This document shows positions 633 through 62,434 of a DNA stretch of 64,000 nt, piece after piece. This DNA comes from an uncultured Acidobacteriota bacterium. GTDB taxonomy: Bacteria; Acidobacteriota; CAIWXX01. Position 1 is the first letter of the stretch. Each line of letters begins with the position of its first letter. The position numbers and the translations under genes are program-made. The notes under the pieces are model-generated. The model was not told the origin of the DNA, made no database searches, and saw nothing but the letters and a program-made list of their open reading frames with translations. The stretch lies in NCBI GenBank assembly GCA_903916735.1, contig CAIWXX010000137.1, forward strand, positions 1-64,000, given 5' to 3'.

Positions 633-654
633 GTCGCGACACAATTAGTGTTAG

Positions 655-1325
655 CGCAACCTTGCGCTAATGCGAAAAAGAAAGAACTGATTGGAGAGTT
701 CAAGAATGGAGGCCAGGAGTGGCAGACGAAAGGCAGCCCGGAAAAGGTCAATGGTCATGATTTTGAGGACAAGGAATTGGGCAAAGGGCTGCCCTACGGA
801 ATACACGATATTTTCAGAAATAAGGGTTGGGTCAGTGTGGGCATTGATCACGACACCGCGGAATCTGCCGTTGCCTCCATCCGGCAATGGTGGCTGCGCA
901 TGGGAAAAACTGCGTACACCGAGGCCACGCAACTGCTCATCACCGCGGGTTCAGGAGGCAGCAACGGCTATCGGATCCGGTTGTGGAAACGAGAGTTGCA
1001 GAAATTGGCGGACGAGTTGGGCCTAACGATCTCGGTGTGTCATTTCCCGCCAGGGATTCGCAAATGGAACAAGATCGAGCACCAGGTGTTCTGTCATATC
1101 ACCGCAAATTGGCGAACACGGCCGCTATCAAGTCTGGAAACGGTGGTGAACCTGATCGCCAACACGACAACCACCAAGGGCTTGCGGATTGAATGTGAAT
1201 TGGACAAGGGTGAATATGCACGGGGTATCGTGGTAACCCCCGATTAGATGCGCTCATTGAATATAACCCCGTCAGAAACCTGCGGCGCCTTGAACTACAA
1301 AATTACCCCCAAAAGTCAATGTTGA
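655..1325 (+). pseudogene. ISAzo13-like transposase remnant
   Basis: This is the C-terminal DDE part of an ISAzo13/Rhodopirellula-type transposase (PF07592 style): a GLPYGIHDIFRNKGWVSVG stretch, the ITAGSGGSNGYR block, CHFPPG.RKWNKIEH with the catalytic Glu, and TTTTKGLRIECELDKGEY. Three lesions are visible. The N-terminus is cut off at about 655. The middle catalytic Asp of the usual ADSGGSNG block is Gly. An in-frame TAG at 1245-1247 interrupts the gene, after which the same frame continues with a LNYKITPKS tail to a TGA at 1323-1325. It lies between the IS91 remnant and a truncated methyltransferase, so the element or its deletion probably caused that truncation. Not functional. Confidence 0.8.
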
Positions 1326-4548: not shown

Positions 4549-4929
4549 ATGAACATCTGTATTCCAATCACCGAGGACAAGGGACTCCAGAGTCCCGTCA
4601 GCGCCCACTTCGGATCGGCGCCTCTCTTCCTTATTGCCGACACCGAGAGTGGCAGTTGCCGGGCGATCGCAAATGCGAACATGCATCATAGTCATGGCAT
4701 GTGCCAGCCTCTCCAGTCGCTCGCCGGCGAAAAGTTTGATGGCATGGTCGTCGGTGGGATCGGAATGGGCGCGCTGAACAAGCTCATGGCCTCGGGCATT
4801 CAGGTATTCCTGTCGGAACATGGGACTGTCGGTGAAACGGTGACGGCCTTTAAAGCCGGAGCGCTACGATTGGTGACGCCGGAGAGAGCATGCCACGCGC
4901 ATGGGCACGGTCATGGCGGGTCACAGTAA
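4549..4929 (+). CDS. NifX/NifB-type dinitrogenase iron-molybdenum cofactor family protein
   Basis: A 126-residue protein of the Nitro_FeMo-Co family (PF02579, MTH1175 type). It shows the typical opening MNICIPITEDKGLQSPVSAHFGSAP, a central HHSHGMCQPLQSLAG metal-linked motif and FDGMVVGGIGMGALNKLMASGI. It ends with a HAHGHGHGG histidine tail. Family members bind Fe-S or Fe-Mo clusters during cofactor assembly; stand-alone copies outside nif clusters are common and mostly uncharacterised. An AAAGGAAAA ribosome-binding sequence precedes the ATG. It lies between the broken DUF134 gene and trmO, all on one strand, probably one transcription unit. No other nif gene is present, so nitrogen fixation is not implied. 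Confidence 0.85.
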   Translation: MNICIPITEDKGLQSPVSAHFGSAPLFLIADTESGSCRAIANANMHHSHGMCQPLQSLAGEKFDGMVVGGIGMGALNKLMASGIQVFLSEHGTVGETVTAFKAGALRLVTPERACHAHGHGHGGSQ

Positions 4930-4951
4930 CAAGAATCCCGGTCGTGGTGAC

Positions 4952-5458
4952 ATGGATCAATCAGACGAACATCATTCCGGGCTTGCATTCCACTCCATAG
5001 GAGTGATTCGCACGCCGTTCATTGAGGCCTCCGGGACGCCGATTCAATCGACGTATGCCGAAGGTGTTGAAGGCGACGTCTGGGTGAACGAGGCCTATGT
5101 GGATGCACTTGCGGATATCGAAGGGTTCGAGCGTGTGTGGTTGATTTATTGGCTGGATCGAGTCGGATGCTACAGGCCAAGAGTGGTTCCTTACCGCGAC
5201 ACTCGGGAACACGGACTCTTCGCGACACGATCTCCGTGCCGACCAAACCCGATTGGGATTTCCGTGGTTCGCCTGCTTCGGCGCGAGGAGAGGGTCCTCC
5301 ATGTGGTGGATGTCGATATTCTCGATAAGACTCCACTCCTTGATATCAAGCCGTATGTCCCCGAGTTTGATTCACATCCAATGTCTCGAGCTGGTTGGTT
5401 TGATCATGGCAGATCAAATCGCGAGGTAGCTGATAACCGGTTTCATGCCGATGAGTAA
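4952..5458 (+). CDS. trmO: tRNA methyltransferase TrmO (TsaA/YaeB family)
   Basis: A 168-residue TsaA-like protein, which uses SAM to methylate the N6-threonylcarbamoyl group of A37 in tRNAs reading ANN codons. Recognisable segments are FHSIGVIRTPF near the N-terminus, the beta-barrel core GDVWVNEAYVDALADIEGF and WLIYWLDR, the SPCRPNPIGISVVRLL motif, and the conserved LDIKPYVPEFD. The start at 4952 is preferred over an in-frame start at 4901, which would overlap the NifX-like gene by 29 bases and add a non-family extension. The gene appears intact. A second, decayed copy of most of it is at 8581-9028. Confidence 0.88.
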   Translation: MDQSDEHHSGLAFHSIGVIRTPFIEASGTPIQSTYAEGVEGDVWVNEAYVDALADIEGFERVWLIYWLDRVGCYRPRVVPYRDTREHGLFATRSPCRPNPIGISVVRLLRREERVLHVVDVDILDKTPLLDIKPYVPEFDSHPMSRAGWFDHGRSNREVADNRFHADE

Positions 5459-5758
5459 TCTGGAACAGGAGGAGGATCGTAACCCTCGGACAGGGTCGAT
5501 TTGAAAATGTGCTCGCCGCTTGGTCAGGCCCTTGCCGGCGCTGTCATTTATTACGGATGCCAGCGCGCCGGCCGCCCGTGCCCTCGATTGCTTCGGCCTG
5601 CATGGCCGCGATTCTTCCCGATCTTGACTTCATCCCAGGCCTGCTCGTGGGTAATGCCAACAAGTACCACCGAGGTTTCACGCGCAGTCTGGCAGGCGTG
5701 ATAATCGCAGCCTTGATTTTGACTGGTGTCAGGAAGGTTGCGGGATCCAGCGGGAATT
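5013..5758 (+). repeat. left copy of a ~0.75-kb direct repeat (trmO-ydjM block)
   Basis: This block, from trmO codon 21 through the first half of ydjM, recurs at 8581-9329 with only scattered substitutions and a few small indels. It has a 1-base deletion in the ydjM part near 5570, while the trmO part is intact. Homology stops abruptly at 5758, after CGGGAATT. Confidence 0.9.
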
Positions 5759-5760
5759 AG
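5507..5760 (+). pseudogene. truncated, frameshifted ydjM copy
   Basis: The sequence begins exactly like the intact gene at 9077: ATG, MCSPLG, ALAGAVIYYGCQRAG. A single base is missing near 5570, where GCGCCGGCC stands against GCGCCGGCATG in the other copy. The rest then continues in the next frame with a DLDFIPGLLVGNANKYHRGF segment. The gene is cut off at 5758 where the repeat ends, losing the second half of the membrane protein. Not functional. Confidence 0.85.
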
Positions 5761-5814
5761 GTAACTACGAGCCGGCAGCTCTGGCCATCGTCTATGGCTT
5801 GCTCAAAGTAATCC

Positions 5815-6161
5815 ATGACAGAAAAGAAGCAGAAAGGTGCCCCAGGGGCAATCAGAACGCCAGCAAACACGGGTTCTACAGCCGGGTTCTTGACGAAGCC
5901 CAGAAGCTTCAGCTTAACGAAGCCCGCGAAGTTGAAGGCATTGACGAGGAAATAGCCCTCTTCCGCGTTAAGCTTCCCACGCACATGGATGAGCACCCCC
6001 AGCGCATCGACCTTCAGATGCTCGCCGCCACTACCATCACCCGCATGGTACGCACTAAGTTCCATATCAGCGCCGGACAAAAAAAATCGCTCAAGGATGC
6101 CATCACCAGGGTGCTTACCAAGATCGTCGTGCCACTGGGGGAAAAGGCAATTATTCGATAG
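5815..6161 (+). pseudogene. frameshifted GNQNA-motif protein of mobile-element type
   Basis: ATG 5815 begins MTEKKQKGAPG, but after the G run at about 5840 the natural continuation GNQNASKHGFYSRVLDEAQK lies in another frame. One base has apparently been lost there. The rest is coherent to the stop at 6161: REVEGIDEEIALFRVKL, then IDLQMLAATTITRMV and a LKDAITRVLTKI helix. Short proteins with a GNQNAxKHG(F/Y)YS motif are frequent in phages and integrated elements, next to terminase or transposase genes, but their role is not established. It is part of the foreign insert between the two trmO-ydjM copies. Confidence 0.55.
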
Positions 6162-6231
6162 CAGATGGATGGACGAAAGAAAAGCCATTCATTCTGGACT
6201 TACTATAAGGAGTGCGTATGGGGTGAGTGCC

Positions 6232-6290
6232 GTCAACGATCGTTGACATGTCGCCGGTTGGTGACAAGACCCTGATTTCAAGCTCCTGGC
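6232..6290 (+). repeat. 59-bp mobile-element end, copy 2 (contains GTCAAC palindrome)
   Basis: A near-identical partner of 3174-3232, starting with GTCAAC-GATC-GTTGAC and ending TTTCAAGCTCCTGGC. Here it is joined directly to the IS91-like transposase remnant, so it is most simply the 5' end of that element. IS91-type elements have no terminal inverted repeats, and a short palindrome at an end is in keeping with rolling-circle ends. Confidence 0.65.
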
Positions 6291-7318
6291 GCTGAGCTGC
6301 AAGACGAGAGGTTTCTGCCCGAGCTGCAGCGCGAAACATGCACTTCTCTAGGCCGAATTCGTTCAGGAGAAAGTGCTCCGGCCTGTGCCCCATCGGCTTG
6401 TCGTTTTCACTTTGCCGAAGATGTTGAGACCGTATTTCAAATTCCATCGCGAACTGCTCCCCAAGCTCTGCCTTTGTGCCTGGGACGCCCTGCGCGAATT
6501 CTTCAAGACTTCACTCTCCACTGGCGTTCTTCCCGGAGCGATCCTTACGATGAATACCGCAGGAGACTTCCTCGGATGGCAGCCACATGTGCACGGAATC
6601 GTGGTGACCTGTGGAGGATTTTTGTCGAACGGTGAATTCGAGCCGGCGCCGGCGATCGATGCGAAGATCGTGCGTGAGCTATTTGAAGCCAAGGTCTTTT
6701 CGTTGCTTCGTGAAAAGGGTCTCATCAGCCACGAGCTCGTGGACAAGATCAGGTCATGGAAGCACACAGAAGGTTCGATGCGTGGATCGGCCCTCCCATC
6801 ACAGACATGAAGGAGATCGTACAGATCGGCATGTAATGGACCAAAACTGAAATATTATGCGAAGGGCACGCAGCCTGATCAAGATATAGGTGCTCTGTTC
6901 GAACCCGACTCCAGAACTTTTGACTACGTGGATTGGATCGCCCGCCTCACCTCGCATATACCCGATAAGGATTGCCAGATGATCCACTATTTTGCAGCTT
7001 ATTCGAACGCTCATCGGGGCAAGGAAGCCAAGGCGGAATCAGCGCCACATCCCGACGGCTCGCCGGCATGAGCAACAGCCGATTCCGAAAAAGATTGGAT
7101 ACAAAAAGAGACGCAAGACCTGGGCTCGTCTTCTTAAGCAGGTATACGAAGTCGCCCCCCTTCTCTGCGAATGCGGTTCGAAGTTCGAAGTGATTTCGGT
7201 CATCGAGGCGCGCCATCACTCGAATGTCGTTGGCAAGATTCCGGCGAGCATCAAGTTCGTCTTCGAGGTACTCAAGCTCCAAGAGGATGGCGCCGGCTCA
7301 GATGCCTATTGCTTCTAA
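6291..7318 (+). pseudogene. IS91-like rolling-circle transposase remnant, near full length
   Basis: Pieces of one transposase follow each other in several frames: TRGFCPSCSAKHA (zinc-finger region), then LVVFTLPKMLRPYFKFHREL, AWDALREFFKTSL and FLGWQPHVHGIVV with the HUH-type HVH pair, ahead of GGFLSNGEFE. After breaks around 6310-6370 and 6785-6960 come DWIARLTSHIPDK, YSNAHRG and, in the frame ending at 7318, RRKTWARLLKQVYEVAPLL, CECGSKFEV and KFVFEVL. At least three frame changes and an internal deletion that removed the catalytic tyrosines' region make it dead. The 248-632 remnant is the same family. Confidence 0.75.
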
Positions 7319-7595
7319 TCCGCCCCGAACATGCACGCGACGGCCAACCTCTATCTGAAATACATTCTCGTCAATCGTGGCTCTTGACTGAGTCTGCCAA
7401 ATCCCCTACTCTGAACTCATGTATCCGCCGCACGGCACCGAAAACATATTCTCCAGGCGCCCTTCCACTGTCCCCGGGGTCGGCGGATGGACGCCTGGAG
7501 TGGTCCTATTAACCCAATATTACTACATCTGTAGAGTTCTCGGTATCCGGTCGAAAAAGCCAATCCTAATAACCTAACCAAGATGGAGGCGTGAG

Positions 7596-8546
7596 ATGAA
7601 ACAAAGAGGTCGGTCGGGCCTGTCGCTCAGTTGCCTTGTTGGAATCTGCGTCGCGTTGGCGGCCCCCCTGGCATCCGCCCAGCAACACCCGAACCTCGCC
7701 GGTTCCTGGGACAGCAATGTTGGCCGCACCTACACCATCTCGCAGCAGGGCACTCAGTTCGTCTGGGTGGAGGGCAGTGGCGCCACCGGTACGGTCACCA
7801 TCACACCGCAGGGCTTGAGCGCCGCGTGGTCCGACGCAATGGGGCCGCAGACGGCCAGCGGCACCATCGTCGAGAACGACACAGCGGGCCGGCCGACGAA
7901 GATCGCCTGGAACAACGGCGTCGTCTTCATGCGCGTGGCTTCTTCCAGCGGAATTGCTCCGCCACAGGGCCAGATGATGACAGGGACAATCATGGGCACG
8001 GTCACCCTGCCGTCGCAGTCGTCGCAGCCGTCAATTCCTCAGAATCCTTTCTTCGACATTGCCGGGCTCATCTCCGAATCGGAACTCATGCTCCTGCGGC
8101 TCGGGCCTTCGCCAGCCTTTCCCTCGGGATTACGGTCCTGGGTCGCCAGCTTCGTGTTTGGAACCGATGCTGCGACGGCGCGCGATCGCGAAGATCCCTC
8201 GCTGGCCGCCGGCCCCGGCGACATCGTCCTGGTCCGCCGGCCCGATCAGAATTCACCGTCGCTGCTGCAGGCGTTTGGCGTCGGCGCCGTCGTGGACAAG
8301 GCCAACGTGGAGGCGTACATTCACAGGAACGGCGAGCCCATCCTGGTGTTCGGCTTGACGCTGGAAACGGTGCGCATCACGGGCTACCGCTTAGTCCGCT
8401 CAGGCTCAGTCGCGACTGCCGCCACACCGTCCTTGAACGAGGAAGTCCGCCTGTCGTTTGGCCGCGTGACGGTGATGGTCCGAACGATAAGCGAGACGGG
8501 CGAGTTGACTCCACCCCAGATCGGCACGTGGACTCCGAAGAAGTAG
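7596..8546 (+). CDS. secreted protein with C-terminal Hcp-like domain
   Basis: A 316-residue exported protein of unknown role. Residues 1-28 form a Sec signal peptide (KQRGR, hydrophobic core, ASAQQ cleavage site). Residues about 30-115 form a small beta-rich domain (LAGSWDSNVGRTYTISQQG, then KIAWNNGVVFMRV) of the kind seen in many exported Acidobacteria-like proteins. Residues about 180-305 read like the Hcp/DUF796 fold: SWVASFVFG, DIVLVRRPDQNSPSLLQAFG, LTLETVRITGYRLV and EEVRLSFGRVTVMV. The Hcp assignment is by motif pattern only. Hcp tube proteins normally lack signal peptides, and no T6SS gene is nearby. A GGAGG stands before the ATG. Its GC content is visibly higher than that of its neighbours and it sits inside the duplicated insert. 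Confidence 0.6.
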   Translation: MKQRGRSGLSLSCLVGICVALAAPLASAQQHPNLAGSWDSNVGRTYTISQQGTQFVWVEGSGATGTVTITPQGLSAAWSDAMGPQTASGTIVENDTAGRPTKIAWNNGVVFMRVASSSGIAPPQGQMMTGTIMGTVTLPSQSSQPSIPQNPFFDIAGLISESELMLLRLGPSPAFPSGLRSWVASFVFGTDAATARDREDPSLAAGPGDIVLVRRPDQNSPSLLQAFGVGAVVDKANVEAYIHRNGEPILVFGLTLETVRITGYRLVRSGSVATAATPSLNEEVRLSFGRVTVMVRTISETGELTPPQIGTWTPKK

Positions 8547-8580
8547 CTCAACCACATGCTCCAGGCATTCCTGGAAGCGC

Positions 8581-9028
8581 CGCCGTTCATTGAGGCCTCC
8601 GGGACGCCGATTCAATCGATGTATGCCGAAGGTGTTGAAGGCGACGTCTGGGTGAACGAGGCCTATGTGGATGCACTTATGGATATCGAAGGGTTCGAGC
8701 GTGTGTGGTTGATTTATTGACTGGATCGAGTCGGATGCTACAGAGGCCAAGAGTGGTTCCTTACCGCGACACACAGGAGCATGGGCTCTTTGCGACACGA
8801 TCTCCGTGCCGACCAAACCCGATTGGGATTTACGTGGTTCGCCTGCTTCGGAGCGAGGAGAGGGTCCTCCACGTGGCGGATGTCGATATTCTCGATAAAA
8901 CTCCACTCCTTGATATCAAGCCGTATGTCCCCGAGTTTGATTCACATCCAATGTCTCGAGCTGGTTGGTTTGATCATGGCAGATCAAATCGCGAGGTAGC
9001 CGATAACCGGTTTCATGCCGATGAGTAA
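8581..9028 (+). pseudogene. trmO copy, truncated with nonsense codon and frameshift
   Basis: It lacks the first 20 codons of trmO. The WLIYWLDR segment has TGG changed to TGA, and a 2-base insertion in GCTACAGAGGCC shifts the frame. Downstream the trmO sequence is still well kept, down to the RSNREVADNRFHADE end. The intact gene is at 4952-5458. Confidence 0.88.
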
Positions 9029-9329
9029 TCTGGAACAGGCGGACGATCGTAACCCTCGGACAGGGTCGATTTGAAAATGTGCTCGCCGCTTGGTCACGCC
9101 CTTGCCGGCGCTGTCATTTATTACGGATGTCAGCGCGCCGGCATGCCCGTGCCCTCGATTGCCTCGGCCTGCATGGCCGCGATACTTCCCGATCTTGACT
9201 TCATCCCAGGCCTGCTCGTGGGTAATGCCAACAAGTACCACCGAGGTTTCACGCATAGTCTGGCAGGCGTGATGATCGCAGCCTTGATTTTGACTGGTGT
9301 CAGAAAGGTTGCGGGATCCAGCGGGAATT
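8581..9329 (+). repeat. right copy of the ~0.75-kb direct repeat (trmO-ydjM block)
   Basis: Homologous to 5013-5758, with an offset of 3568 bases at the left edge and 3571 at the right. It starts abruptly inside trmO at codon 21, right after the Hcp-like gene, and continues into an intact ydjM. Compared with the left copy it carries TGG-to-TGA at about 8719 and a 2-base insertion near 8744. Confidence 0.9.
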
Positions 9330-9592
9330 CCCTTCTATTGGTATTCTTTTTTACGATGTGCCTGCTGGCACATTTGCTGTGCGACTATTTCACCCAGGAT
9401 TACCCACCAGAGGCGGGCATTCCGATTTTTTGGCCTTTGAATTCCACACATCACATGTCGCCGTGGATCATCTTTGGAGAATCAATGCGTGAGCCCTTAT
9501 TGAGTCGCGACGTCATCATACACAATGGAATGATTGCCGCAGTGGAGGTCGGCCTGTTTATGCCTCCGCTGCTCCTATTGGCGTTTGCGTGA
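9077..9592 (+). CDS. YdjM-family membrane-bound metal-dependent hydrolase
   Basis: A 171-residue inner-membrane protein of the LexA-binding/YdjM family (PF04307). Visible marks are MCSPLGHALAGAVIYYG, the DLDFIPGLLVGN acidic motif, HRGFTHSLAG (H-x3-TH-S, the family's metal-site signature), a LLLVFFFTMCLLAHLLCDYF membrane helix and PIFWPL. Family members are predicted metal-dependent hydrolases, and the substrate is unknown. It is the intact member of the duplicated trmO-ydjM pair. ATG 9077 is used; TTG 9071 is an alternative two codons up. In the ancestral order it would follow trmO directly. Confidence 0.8.
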   Translation: MCSPLGHALAGAVIYYGCQRAGMPVPSIASACMAAILPDLDFIPGLLVGNANKYHRGFTHSLAGVMIAALILTGVRKVAGSSGNSLLLVFFFTMCLLAHLLCDYFTQDYPPEAGIPIFWPLNSTHHMSPWIIFGESMREPLLSRDVIIHNGMIAAVEVGLFMPPLLLLAFA

Positions 9593-13453: not shown

Positions 13454-13859
13454 CTTCCAATCCTTTCGGAAAGAGAATTGATATTATCGCACTCTCATTA
13501 TAAACGAAAACGGATCTAACCTTAAGCGGCTGCATAGTATCTGATCGGTGAAATCTGTGAACAAAATGGCAAAAGTTGTGATAGGGCAGGATCGTGAATC
13601 CCTCTCAGGAAGCCAGGAAAAAAGGAATGCAGGAATGGCTTATGAAACCACCGCTGCTGGTCGACATAAAAATCCATTCCTGCTTTCTTCTCTTCCTGCA
13701 TTCCTGAGAGGTTCGGGAGCGATGGTTGTCGAAGCCATCTTGTTTGGTTGCGGCTATGCCGTATTAGGATTGGAGGATGGCGGGAGCTCAAACAAAAATC
13801 GACTCGCGTGCGACGATGATCAGAGTGGGCTCAACAAACACGAATGACAATCTGTCGCT
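13454..13859. other. intergenic region holding repeat copy A
   Basis: Apart from the ~230-bp repeat at 13536-13768, no gene is seen between gpmA and the sulfatase-like gene, both on the minus strand. The frames that cross the repeat on both strands are by-products of its inverted arms. Confidence 0.5.
13536..13768 (+). repeat. dispersed hairpin repeat, copy A
   Basis: One of four related copies (others at 23251, 55923 and 62189). Order of parts: a lead-in TATCTGATCGGTGAAATC, GGCAAAAGTTGTGATAGGGC, left arm CTCAGGAAGCCAGGAAAA with GGAATGCAGGAATGG, a ~35-bp loop, right arm CCATTCCTGCTTTC and CCTGCATTCCTGAGAGG, then GCGATGGTTGTCGAAGCC and GGTTGCGGCTATGCCG. The two arms are imperfect inverted repeats of about 38 bp. 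Confidence 0.85.
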
Positions 13860-23008: not shown

Positions 23009-23250
23009 GACATCGTGACTCGGTGACTCACTGAAATTCACCTGATCGGATTACGATCGACTCGGATGGGCGATCATTCGCGCACGCGCCCGGTTGATGG
23101 CACGTTCCGAATATGCCGGGGCACCTTGATGCGCAAAGAACTCCGGGTGGTTAAGCCAAAATATGCCGGCCGGCACTCATGGTTGACACCGAGGACTCAC
23201 TATGCCCGCATGCTCATATTCAATATTGATAAGTAGGAGGGGAAATTTTT

Positions 23251-23476
23251 AATATCTGACCAGTCAACTCTGTGCACAAAACGGCAAGACCTGTGACAGG
23301 GCATAATCGTGAATTCCTCTCAGGAAACCAGGAAAAAAGGAATGCAGGAATGGCGTATGAAACCAATGCTGGTAATAAAAATCCGTTCCTGCTTTTTCCC
23401 TTCCTGCATTCCTGAGAGTTTCGGGAGCGATGGTTGTCGAAGCCGGCTTGTTTGGCTGCGGCTATGCCGCGTTAGG
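23251..23476 (+). repeat. dispersed hairpin repeat, copy B
   Basis: The same order of parts as copy A: AATATCTGACCAGTCAAC lead-in (this variant lead-in is shared with copy D), GGCAAGACCTGTGACAGGGC, arms CTCAGGAAACCAGGAAAA and CCTTCCTGCATTCCTGAGAG, then GCGATGGTTGTCGAAGCC and the GGCTGCGGCTATGCCGCG end. Confidence 0.85.
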
Positions 23477-55799: not shown

Positions 55800-55922
55800 C
55801 TGTTTATCTCGTTTTTCAAATCAATAGCTTAGACAAGAACAACCACATTTGCAAGGAAGTTCTTGGGCTGTGGAGCCGACAGATCATACGCTCAGGTGTG
55901 TAGAATTGTGACGATCGCATTG

Positions 55923-56153
55923 GTGTCTAATCGGTGAAATCCGTGCACAAAATGGCAAGACCTGTGATAGGGCAAAATCGTGAATTCCTCTCAGGAAGCC
56001 AGGAAGAAAGGAATGCAGGAATGGCTTATGAAACCACCACTGCTGGTTGAAATAAAAATCCGTTCCTGCTTTCTTCTCTTCCTGCATTCCTGAGAGGTTC
56101 GATTGCGATGGTTGTCGAAGCCGGCTTGTTTGGTTGCGGCCATGCCGCGTTAG
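55923..56153 (+). repeat. dispersed hairpin repeat, copy C
   Basis: Closest to copy A over the arms: TCGGTGAAATCCGTGCAC lead-in, GGCAAGACCTGTGATAGGGC, left arm CTCAGGAAGCCAGGAAGA, right arm CTCTTCCTGCATTCCTGAGA, then GATGGTTGTCGAAGCCGG and GGTTGCGGCCATGCCGCG. Confidence 0.85.
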
Positions 56154-56445
56154 AGATCGGAGATGTCGAGCAAGCTCCTCTGATCATCGGCTTAGCCACA
56201 ACCTTAATTCATGGTCTCTGAATATTTTTCCTGAGCTCATGAGCTTTTCCACTCTGCTTCGTTTCAGTCAGGCTCACCGCACTGGATTTGACTCGATATC
56301 GATGAGACTTCACCAATTCAAAATTTCCTGATGTGGCACCGGCTTGACTTGGACGTTACCGTGGCATCCGTGCCCCCTTGCTTGTTTCCGCGGCGCGGGT
56401 ATGGTAGAAAAGTATTCTATTTTTTAAGGAAGAAGAAACATCTTC

Positions 56446-62105: not shown

Positions 62106-62434
62106 CGATGAAAGACCTCCTACGCCCCGTTCATTCCTGATGTTTATCGATAGCGATCGGTTCCCGGATGTGAGAAGGGTAGAGGATTAGTATCTGACCA
62201 GTCAACTCTGTGCACAAAATGGCAAGACCTCTGATAGGGCATAATCGCGAATTCCTCTCAGGAAGCCAGGAAGAAAGGAAACCAGGAACGAACCGACACC
62301 ATTGCCGGCACACTACCTTCTGTTCCTCCCTTCCTGGCTTCCTGAGAGGTCCTGAGTCGCCCTGGTGGTGCGCCCCACCATCTTTGGTTCTGGCTCCGCC
62401 AGGTTAGGTAGAAGAAGTATTCGTCTTTTCGATT
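62106..62434. other. intergenic region with repeat copy D
   Basis: Repeat copy D (62189-62408) fills most of the gap between the phosphopantetheinyl transferase gene and queD. No other element was seen. Confidence 0.5.
62189..62408 (+). repeat. dispersed hairpin repeat, copy D (perfect-arm variant)
   Basis: It shares the lead-in TATCTGACCAGTCAACTC with copy B and GGCAAGACCTCTGATAGGGC with the rest. Here CCTCTCAGGAAGCCAGGAAG pairs without mismatch with CTTCCTGGCTTCCTGAGAGG. The inner loop and the 3' third (CCTGGTGGTGCGCCCCACCA) differ from copies A-C, with a second small hairpin at the right. Confidence 0.8.

What the first reader, a model, noticed from the sequence alone, without database searches (positions are those of the whole stretch)
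7596..8546. Signal-peptide protein with an apparent Hcp-like domain outside any T6SS
The C-terminal half has the order of conserved segments of Hcp/DUF796 proteins (SPxLLQA, tLe.VrI, EEVrLsF). The N-terminus has a Sec signal and a small beta-rich domain. An exported, two-domain Hcp-like protein without type VI genes, carried in an insert between duplicated blocks and with higher GC, could be a new secreted use of the fold.
Basis: inference. Interest (0 to 1): 0.55.

Follow-up and report, generated by a model that had tools for sequence, protein, structure and literature searches.

The report
Exported tube-protein relative with added barrel
A bacterium without a type VI injection machine carries one apparently exported protein that joins a small avidin-like barrel to a relative of that machine's tube protein, which suggests the tube fold has been reused outside its usual machine.

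Summary
Window 7596-8546 (+) encodes 316 aa: a Sec-type signal peptide, a small beta domain, a linker and a divergent Hcp domain. Pfam T6SS_HCP is over its cut-off (26.3 v 23.5 bits). Leave-one-out profiles give 40.8 bits (14 exported Hcp-like rows) and 29.0 bits (82 others), at most 5.6 in 1000 shuffles. TssB, TssC and TssK are absent from the 98.7% complete genome. It is no isolated oddity: of 70 Acidobacteriota genomes with a detected Hcp domain (396 searched), 9 of the 11 without TssC carry a signal-peptide form, against 3 of the 59 with TssC (signal peptides judged by eye and hydrophobicity). The N-terminal domain is a reused module outside Pfam, predicted as an eight-stranded avidin-like barrel. 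The pairing was found only here. The gene has foreign composition and starts about 20 bp after the end of a degraded IS91-like element. Best reading: a horizontally acquired, T6SS-independent exported scaffold or binding protein. Homology is well supported, export likely, function inferred. No model of the Hcp half was obtained.

The parts
7596..8546 (+). Gene of the exported two-domain Hcp-like protein, 316 aa (P0001)
   Evidence: GC3 0.795
7596..7679 (+). Signal peptide, residues 1-28, expected cut after ASA
   Evidence: by eye from the translation; hydrophobic stretch
7695..7934 (+). N-terminal module, residues 34-113, predicted eight-stranded avidin-like barrel
7935..8102 (+). S/P/Q-rich linker and run-up to the Hcp domain, residues 114-169; the first Hcp strand may begin near residue 163
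8103..8528 (+). Hcp-like domain as matched by the leave-one-out exported profile, residues 170-311
7585..7589 (+). Shine-Dalgarno-like GGAGG
7521..7559 (+). Conserved end motif of the IS91-like element (TACTACA..TGTAG dyad); 39 places in this genome
6144..7574 (+). Degraded IS91-like element, multi-copy in the genome, ending about 20 bp before the ATG; transposase remnant 6283-6720
5013..5758 (.). Left copy of the duplicated block (most of trmO and the start of ydjM)
8581..9329 (.). Right copy of the duplicated block, 96% identical

Best explanation
It is a Sec-exported, T6SS-independent relative of Hcp, fused behind a small avidin-like barrel module, acquired horizontally and sitting directly behind an IS91-like element end. 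Likely working: the signal peptide takes it across the inner membrane; in the periplasm or outside the cell the Hcp domain oligomerises (in T6SS Hcp, a hexameric ring) and presents several copies of the barrel, which binds a ligand or surface, so that the protein acts as a multivalent scaffold or binding protein. Shown by computation: Hcp homology, reuse of the N-module, absence of T6SS sheath and baseplate genes, foreign composition, recurrence of signal-peptide Hcp-like proteins in T6SS-less relatives. Inferred: export, the barrel fold (a model), oligomerisation, ligand binding, horizontal origin, expression from the element's end.
For: Pfam PF05638 over its cut-off. Leave-one-out profiles 40.8 (14 exported rows), 29.0 (82 other rows) and 38.7 bits (96 rows), against at most 5.6 in 1000 shuffles. 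hhalign of the domain alone against 12 T6SS Hcps E 6e-6, probability 85; an alignment of 8 Hcp-like rows, the window's among them, E 1.6e-31 and PDB Hcp 1y12 E 2.6e-28. No TssC, TssB or TssK (each rang in the E. coli control), and the gene is the only PF05638 match. Signal-peptide Hcp-like proteins in 9 of 11 TssC-less and 3 of 59 TssC-bearing genomes, Fisher p 1.7e-7. The N-module is reused: C97 of this genome (two copies), Aminicenantes MAGs, Desulfobacterota MAGs, there once as signal peptide + module + tectonin repeats. Barrel model pLDDT 87, Z 10.0 to bradavidin2 and 10.2 to a streptavidin monomer.
Against: The window domain is very divergent (27% identity at best, end branch 3.3), and no model of the Hcp half exists, so oligomerisation is untested. 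The module-Hcp pairing was seen once only, so it may be a chance fusion. Foreign composition and an IS-rich setting leave room for a recent, useless passenger. The TssC association is partly expected: in a genome without T6SS any Hcp must be T6SS-independent. The A3 profile was built mostly from exported rows and missed G035 and G037, whose Hcps have no signal peptide.
Confidence: 0.5

Rival explanations
1. A recently acquired passenger without present function: an exported Hcp-like gene dragged in between repeats and still intact only because it is young.
For: GC3 0.795 against 0.50-0.67 in nine neighbouring genes; flanked by a degraded IS91-like element and a truncated duplicate; no homologue with the same layout found.
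Against: Intact ORF with a Shine-Dalgarno-like site while the flanking duplicate and the transposase are broken; both domains keep their family signatures.
Confidence: 0.25
2. A periplasmic guard: an exported Hcp look-alike that binds incoming Hcp rings or their cargo and so blunts T6SS attack by neighbours in a bacterium without its own T6SS.
For: Exported Hcp-like proteins occur in 9 of 11 TssC-less genomes that have any detected Hcp domain; attackers' Hcp reaches the prey (recalled).
Against: Most genomes have no Hcp domain at all (70 of 396 have one), so the trait is far from general in T6SS-less bacteria; no common neighbour was recognised by eye in ORF listings of four loci, which were not scanned against families; TssC-bearing G061 has two such proteins.
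Confidence: 0.1
3. A true T6SS tube protein or Hcp-fused effector delivered by an undetected T6SS.
For: Pfam family name; Hcp fusions exist as T6SS effectors (recalled).
Against: No TssB, TssC or TssK in a 98.7% complete genome; T6SS Hcps carry no classical signal peptide (passage in PMC2944823), this one appears to; NCBIfam TssD model far under its cut-off, 16.3 against 58.9 bits.
Confidence: 0.05

Closest known systems
Hcp / TssD, T6SS tube protein (PF05638, TIGR03344)
   Same: Order of conserved segments; Pfam cut-off met; profile match through 82 non-exported Acidobacteriota rows
   Different: Signal peptide, N-terminal module, no T6SS genes, 27% identity at best, TIGR03344 cut-off not met
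Signal-peptide Hcp-like orphans of Acidobacteriota (15 proteins in 12 genomes here, the window's included)
   Same: Export signal, mostly in TssC-less genomes; closest by profile
   Different: None of the others carries the avidin-like module; one (G115) has a collagen-like repeat instead, most have no extra domain. On the tree the exported label needs at least 2 changes, 6 by parsimony, so probably not one clade
Orphan hcp islands on plasmids and chromosomes (PMC13098142; abstract and passages seen)
   Same: hcp outside a full T6SS cluster, IS elements nearby
   Different: Those are read there as spare parts for a resident T6SS; the paper's main text has no occurrence of 'signal peptide'
Avidin/streptavidin fold (bradavidin2 4ggr, streptavidin)
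   Same: Predicted eight-stranded barrel of similar size, Z about 10; likeness of the GTW-type first strand is recalled
   Different: No Pfam avidin match, Foldseek E no better than 0.07, designed barrels and Cap15 score as high, 10-20% identity: shared fold only

Membership tests
PF05638 (T6SS_HCP) as a sequence family | Score over the curated cut-off of 23.5 bits | tested here: met
   26.3 bits for the protein; 28.1 bits on the genome
PF05638 (T6SS_HCP) as a sequence family | Domain covered from end to end | tested here: inconclusive
   Pfam covers profile 50-127 of 129; leave-one-out profile covers 34-150 of 159; the first strands align plausibly with other exported rows but differently
TssD, T6SS tube protein (TIGR03344) | Score over the curated cut-off of 58.9 bits | tested here: not met
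   16.3 bits
TssD, T6SS tube protein | Encoded in a genome with T6SS sheath and baseplate | tested here: not met
   No PF05943, PF05591 or PF05936 match in G000, E. coli control positive each time
TssD, T6SS tube protein | No classical signal peptide | tested here: not met
   Signal peptide by eye and hydrophobicity; rule from a passage of PMC2944823
TssD, T6SS tube protein | Acidic residues that EvpC needs for secretion (D4, E15, E26) | tested here: inconclusive
   Aligned exported rows acidic at 4, 7 and 2 of 15, other rows at 56, 62 and 31 of 82; the window row is badly aligned there
Hcp fold | Hexameric ring of beta-barrels | not testable with these tools
   Single-sequence model failed, pLDDT 33; the remaining prediction job went to the N-module
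Avidin family | Sequence match to the family | tested here: not met
   No avidin model among Pfam matches up to E 10 for any of 14 module members, though HMMER filters drop weak ones
Avidin family | Eight-stranded up-and-down barrel | tested here: met
   AlphaFold2 pLDDT 87.2, eight strands; Z 10.0, rmsd 1.8 over 77 residues to 4ggr, tied with designed barrels
Avidin family | Biotin-binding residues | not tested
   No residue-level comparison was made

The most novel reading that the evidence does not exclude
Signal-peptide Hcp-like proteins are a recurrent T6SS-independent class in which the ring-forming tube fold is used outside the cytoplasm as a display or guard scaffold, and this gene is a case where a mobile-element end stands directly before such a scaffold carrying an avidin-like ligand-binding module.
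Probability: 0.3. Interest if true: 0.75.

Novelty: new variant of a known kind. Interest (0 to 1): 0.5.

Why it matters
Hcp is a textbook marker of type VI secretion. A class of exported Hcp-like proteins concentrated in genomes without the machine means (1) Hcp hits alone should not be read as T6SS, and (2) the fold may have a life of its own outside the cytoplasm, which can be tested with one protein: does it leave the cell, does it form rings, what does the barrel bind. In the ten full-text searches made here no listing pointed to a description of such a class; this covers open-licence PMC papers only.

Tried and rejected
Rejected: a coincidental motif match (shuffles and leave-one-out profiles); an ordinary orphan hcp serving a resident T6SS; a cysteine signature for export (counts in exported domains overlap those of the others); shared gene neighbours as a system clue (four loci listed by ORF, no common neighbour recognised by eye, families not scanned); a plasmid or phage home (no tblastn match at E 0.01 in 72,556 plasmid and 50,697 phage records).

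Led nowhere: genome-contig scan with the protein (38 stretches, no relative); viral-contig scans (none; Hcps without the module); single-sequence fold; two alignments meant to fold both halves were misplaced by MAFFT, so the last job went to the N-module alone; Rfam on 4900-9400 found nothing; the promoter and terminator scan of 7300-8700 gave one promoter-like site, inside the gene, and no terminator. Foldseek against viral models gave one match under E 0.001, an uncharacterised giant-virus protein, not followed. phmmer of the protein against PDB found no Hcp. In the tree the window row is a very long branch and its place is not to be trusted.

Full report
What is there. The ORF 7596-8546 (+) encodes 316 residues, with GGAGG ahead of its ATG. 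Residues 1-28 read as a Sec signal peptide ending ASA|QQ (by eye). Residues 34-113 form a small module, 114-169 are mostly an S/P/Q-rich linker, and 170-311 match Hcp. GC3 is 0.795 against 0.50-0.67 for nine neighbouring genes.

Is it Hcp? PF05638 matches at 26.3 bits, cut-off 23.5, and this is the only match in the genome. The NCBIfam TssD model gives 16.3 bits against 58.9, so it is a family relative and not a called TssD. phmmer against PDB with the protein alone found no Hcp. The domain alone against 12 T6SS Hcps gives hhalign E 6e-6, probability 85. An alignment of eight Hcp-like rows including the window's (L051 among them has no signal peptide) gives E 1.6e-31 and matches PDB Hcps down to E 2.6e-28, but those figures rest largely on the other rows. 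The fair test leaves the window row out: 40.8 bits with 14 exported rows, 29.0 with 82 non-exported rows, 38.7 with all 96, against at most 5.6 bits in 1000 shuffles of the mature part.

No machine. TssC, TssB and TssK are absent from the own genome (98.7% complete, 183 contigs), and each search found its family in the E. coli control.

Relatives. With the profile A3, 70 of 396 Acidobacteriota genomes have an Hcp domain, 97 hits in all. All 97 frames were read. TssC is present in 59 of the 70. A signal peptide, judged by hydrophobicity and by eye, is present in 15 proteins: G000, G045, G098, G115, G152, G256, G261 (two), G262 (two), G274, and in TssC-bearing G061 (two), G241 and G326 (a contig-end fragment). 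One automatic flag (G378) was rejected as a T6SS Hcp start. So 9 of 11 TssC-less and 3 of 59 TssC-bearing genomes have an exported form, Fisher p 1.7e-7. Against this: A3 was built mostly from exported rows; it missed G035 and G037, found by PF05638, whose Hcps have no signal peptide; G035 also lacks TssB, which would make it 9 of 12; G060 and G358 are TssC-less with non-exported Hcps; and the link is in part what T6SS-independence predicts anyway. The tree needs at least two changes of the exported label, six by parsimony, and its long branches are unsure. G115 joins a signal peptide and a collagen-like repeat to Hcp. Acidic residues needed for EvpC secretion (PMC2944823, passages) are less common in exported rows, 4, 7 and 2 of 15 against 56, 62 and 31 of 82, with poor alignment of the window row.

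The N-module. In 396 genomes the protein's N-half finds relatives in four genomes at E 1e-7 or better (G000 C97, G082, G287, G357). A DNA pattern for its most conserved stretch finds five contigs in 84,980 species genomes: three of Aminicenantes/Acidobacteria records and two of Desulfobacterota MAGs (Desulfobacterota by the record titles Zymogenaceae and Desulfobacterales). One of the latter encodes signal peptide + module + tectonin repeats. The module has no convincing Pfam match; the nearest is DUF6287 at E 0.0046. AlphaFold2 with 14 rows gives pLDDT 87 and eight strands. Structural comparison gives Z about 10 to bradavidin2 and streptavidin, but equally to designed barrels and Cap15; Foldseek's best E is 0.07. 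I read this as an avidin-like barrel fold without any claim of biotin binding.

Setting. The insert 5759-8580 lies between copies of a 746/749-base block, 96% identical. Its left part belongs to an IS91-like element with 55 matching stretches in the genome, the window's own included (for transposase remnants). The element ends near 7574 and the gene's ribosome site follows about 11 bases later. The end motif occurs at 39 places. With an automatic rule (ATG, ribosome-site-like motif, 150 aa or more, start within 130 bases), 9 of 39 ends have such an ORF, against 5.8% of 4000 random positions in this genome (p 3e-4); the rule missed the window gene itself by choosing a longer overlapping frame. 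All 9 have a hydrophobic N-terminus, against 11 of 32 genes in the window and L062. These tests were made after seeing the pattern, with a crude gene rule, and 30 of 39 ends do not fit it. The second gene of this genome with the module (C97) is also directly behind such an end. Among 60 related genomes, G000 included, the motif is otherwise found once, in G001.

Mechanism. Shown by computation: Hcp homology, module reuse, missing T6SS genes, foreign composition, recurrence of signal-peptide Hcp-like proteins. Inferred: export, ring formation, ligand binding by the barrel, and expression from the element end. I hold homology plus export as likely (about 0.85) and the multivalent scaffold or binding role as the best single guess (about 0.35 on its own); 0.5 is my figure for the explanation as a whole.

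Literature. Ten searches were judged from their listings; passages of PMC13098142 and PMC2944823 were read. None described signal-peptide Hcp-like proteins. EvpC's paper states that T6SS Hcps have no classical signal peptide, and describes hexameric rings.

Noticed in passing
39 places in G000, among them window 7521-7559, L094, L081, L089, L101, L104: Ends of an IS91-like element carrying a TACTACA..TGTAG dyad (BlaI/CopY-operator-like, recalled) often lie just upstream of genes for exported proteins; a mobile promoter or gene-capture effect is possible.
   Followed up: partly
L047 166-1767 (G000 C97): An exported protein of 475-533 residues (by start chosen) with no Pfam match ends in two copies of the same module as the window protein and also sits behind the element end.
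   Followed up: partly
L065 1-2013 (Zymogenaceae MAG): Neighbouring genes encode signal peptide + module + tectonin repeats and signal peptide + module + a second divergent module.
   Followed up: partly
L229 8120-9578 (G061): Two exported Hcp-like genes side by side in a T6SS-bearing genome, one with an extra C-terminal stretch.
   Followed up: no
L230 1469-2227 (G115): Signal peptide + collagen-like GPT/GPA repeat + Hcp domain in a genome without TssB and TssC.
   Followed up: no
window 13535-13775, 23250-23476, 55919-56162, 62186-62348: A family of four 100-240-base repeats, partly self-complementary.
   Followed up: no
window 648-1247: Part of a DDE transposase of the ISAZ013 family (PF07592).
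   Followed up: no
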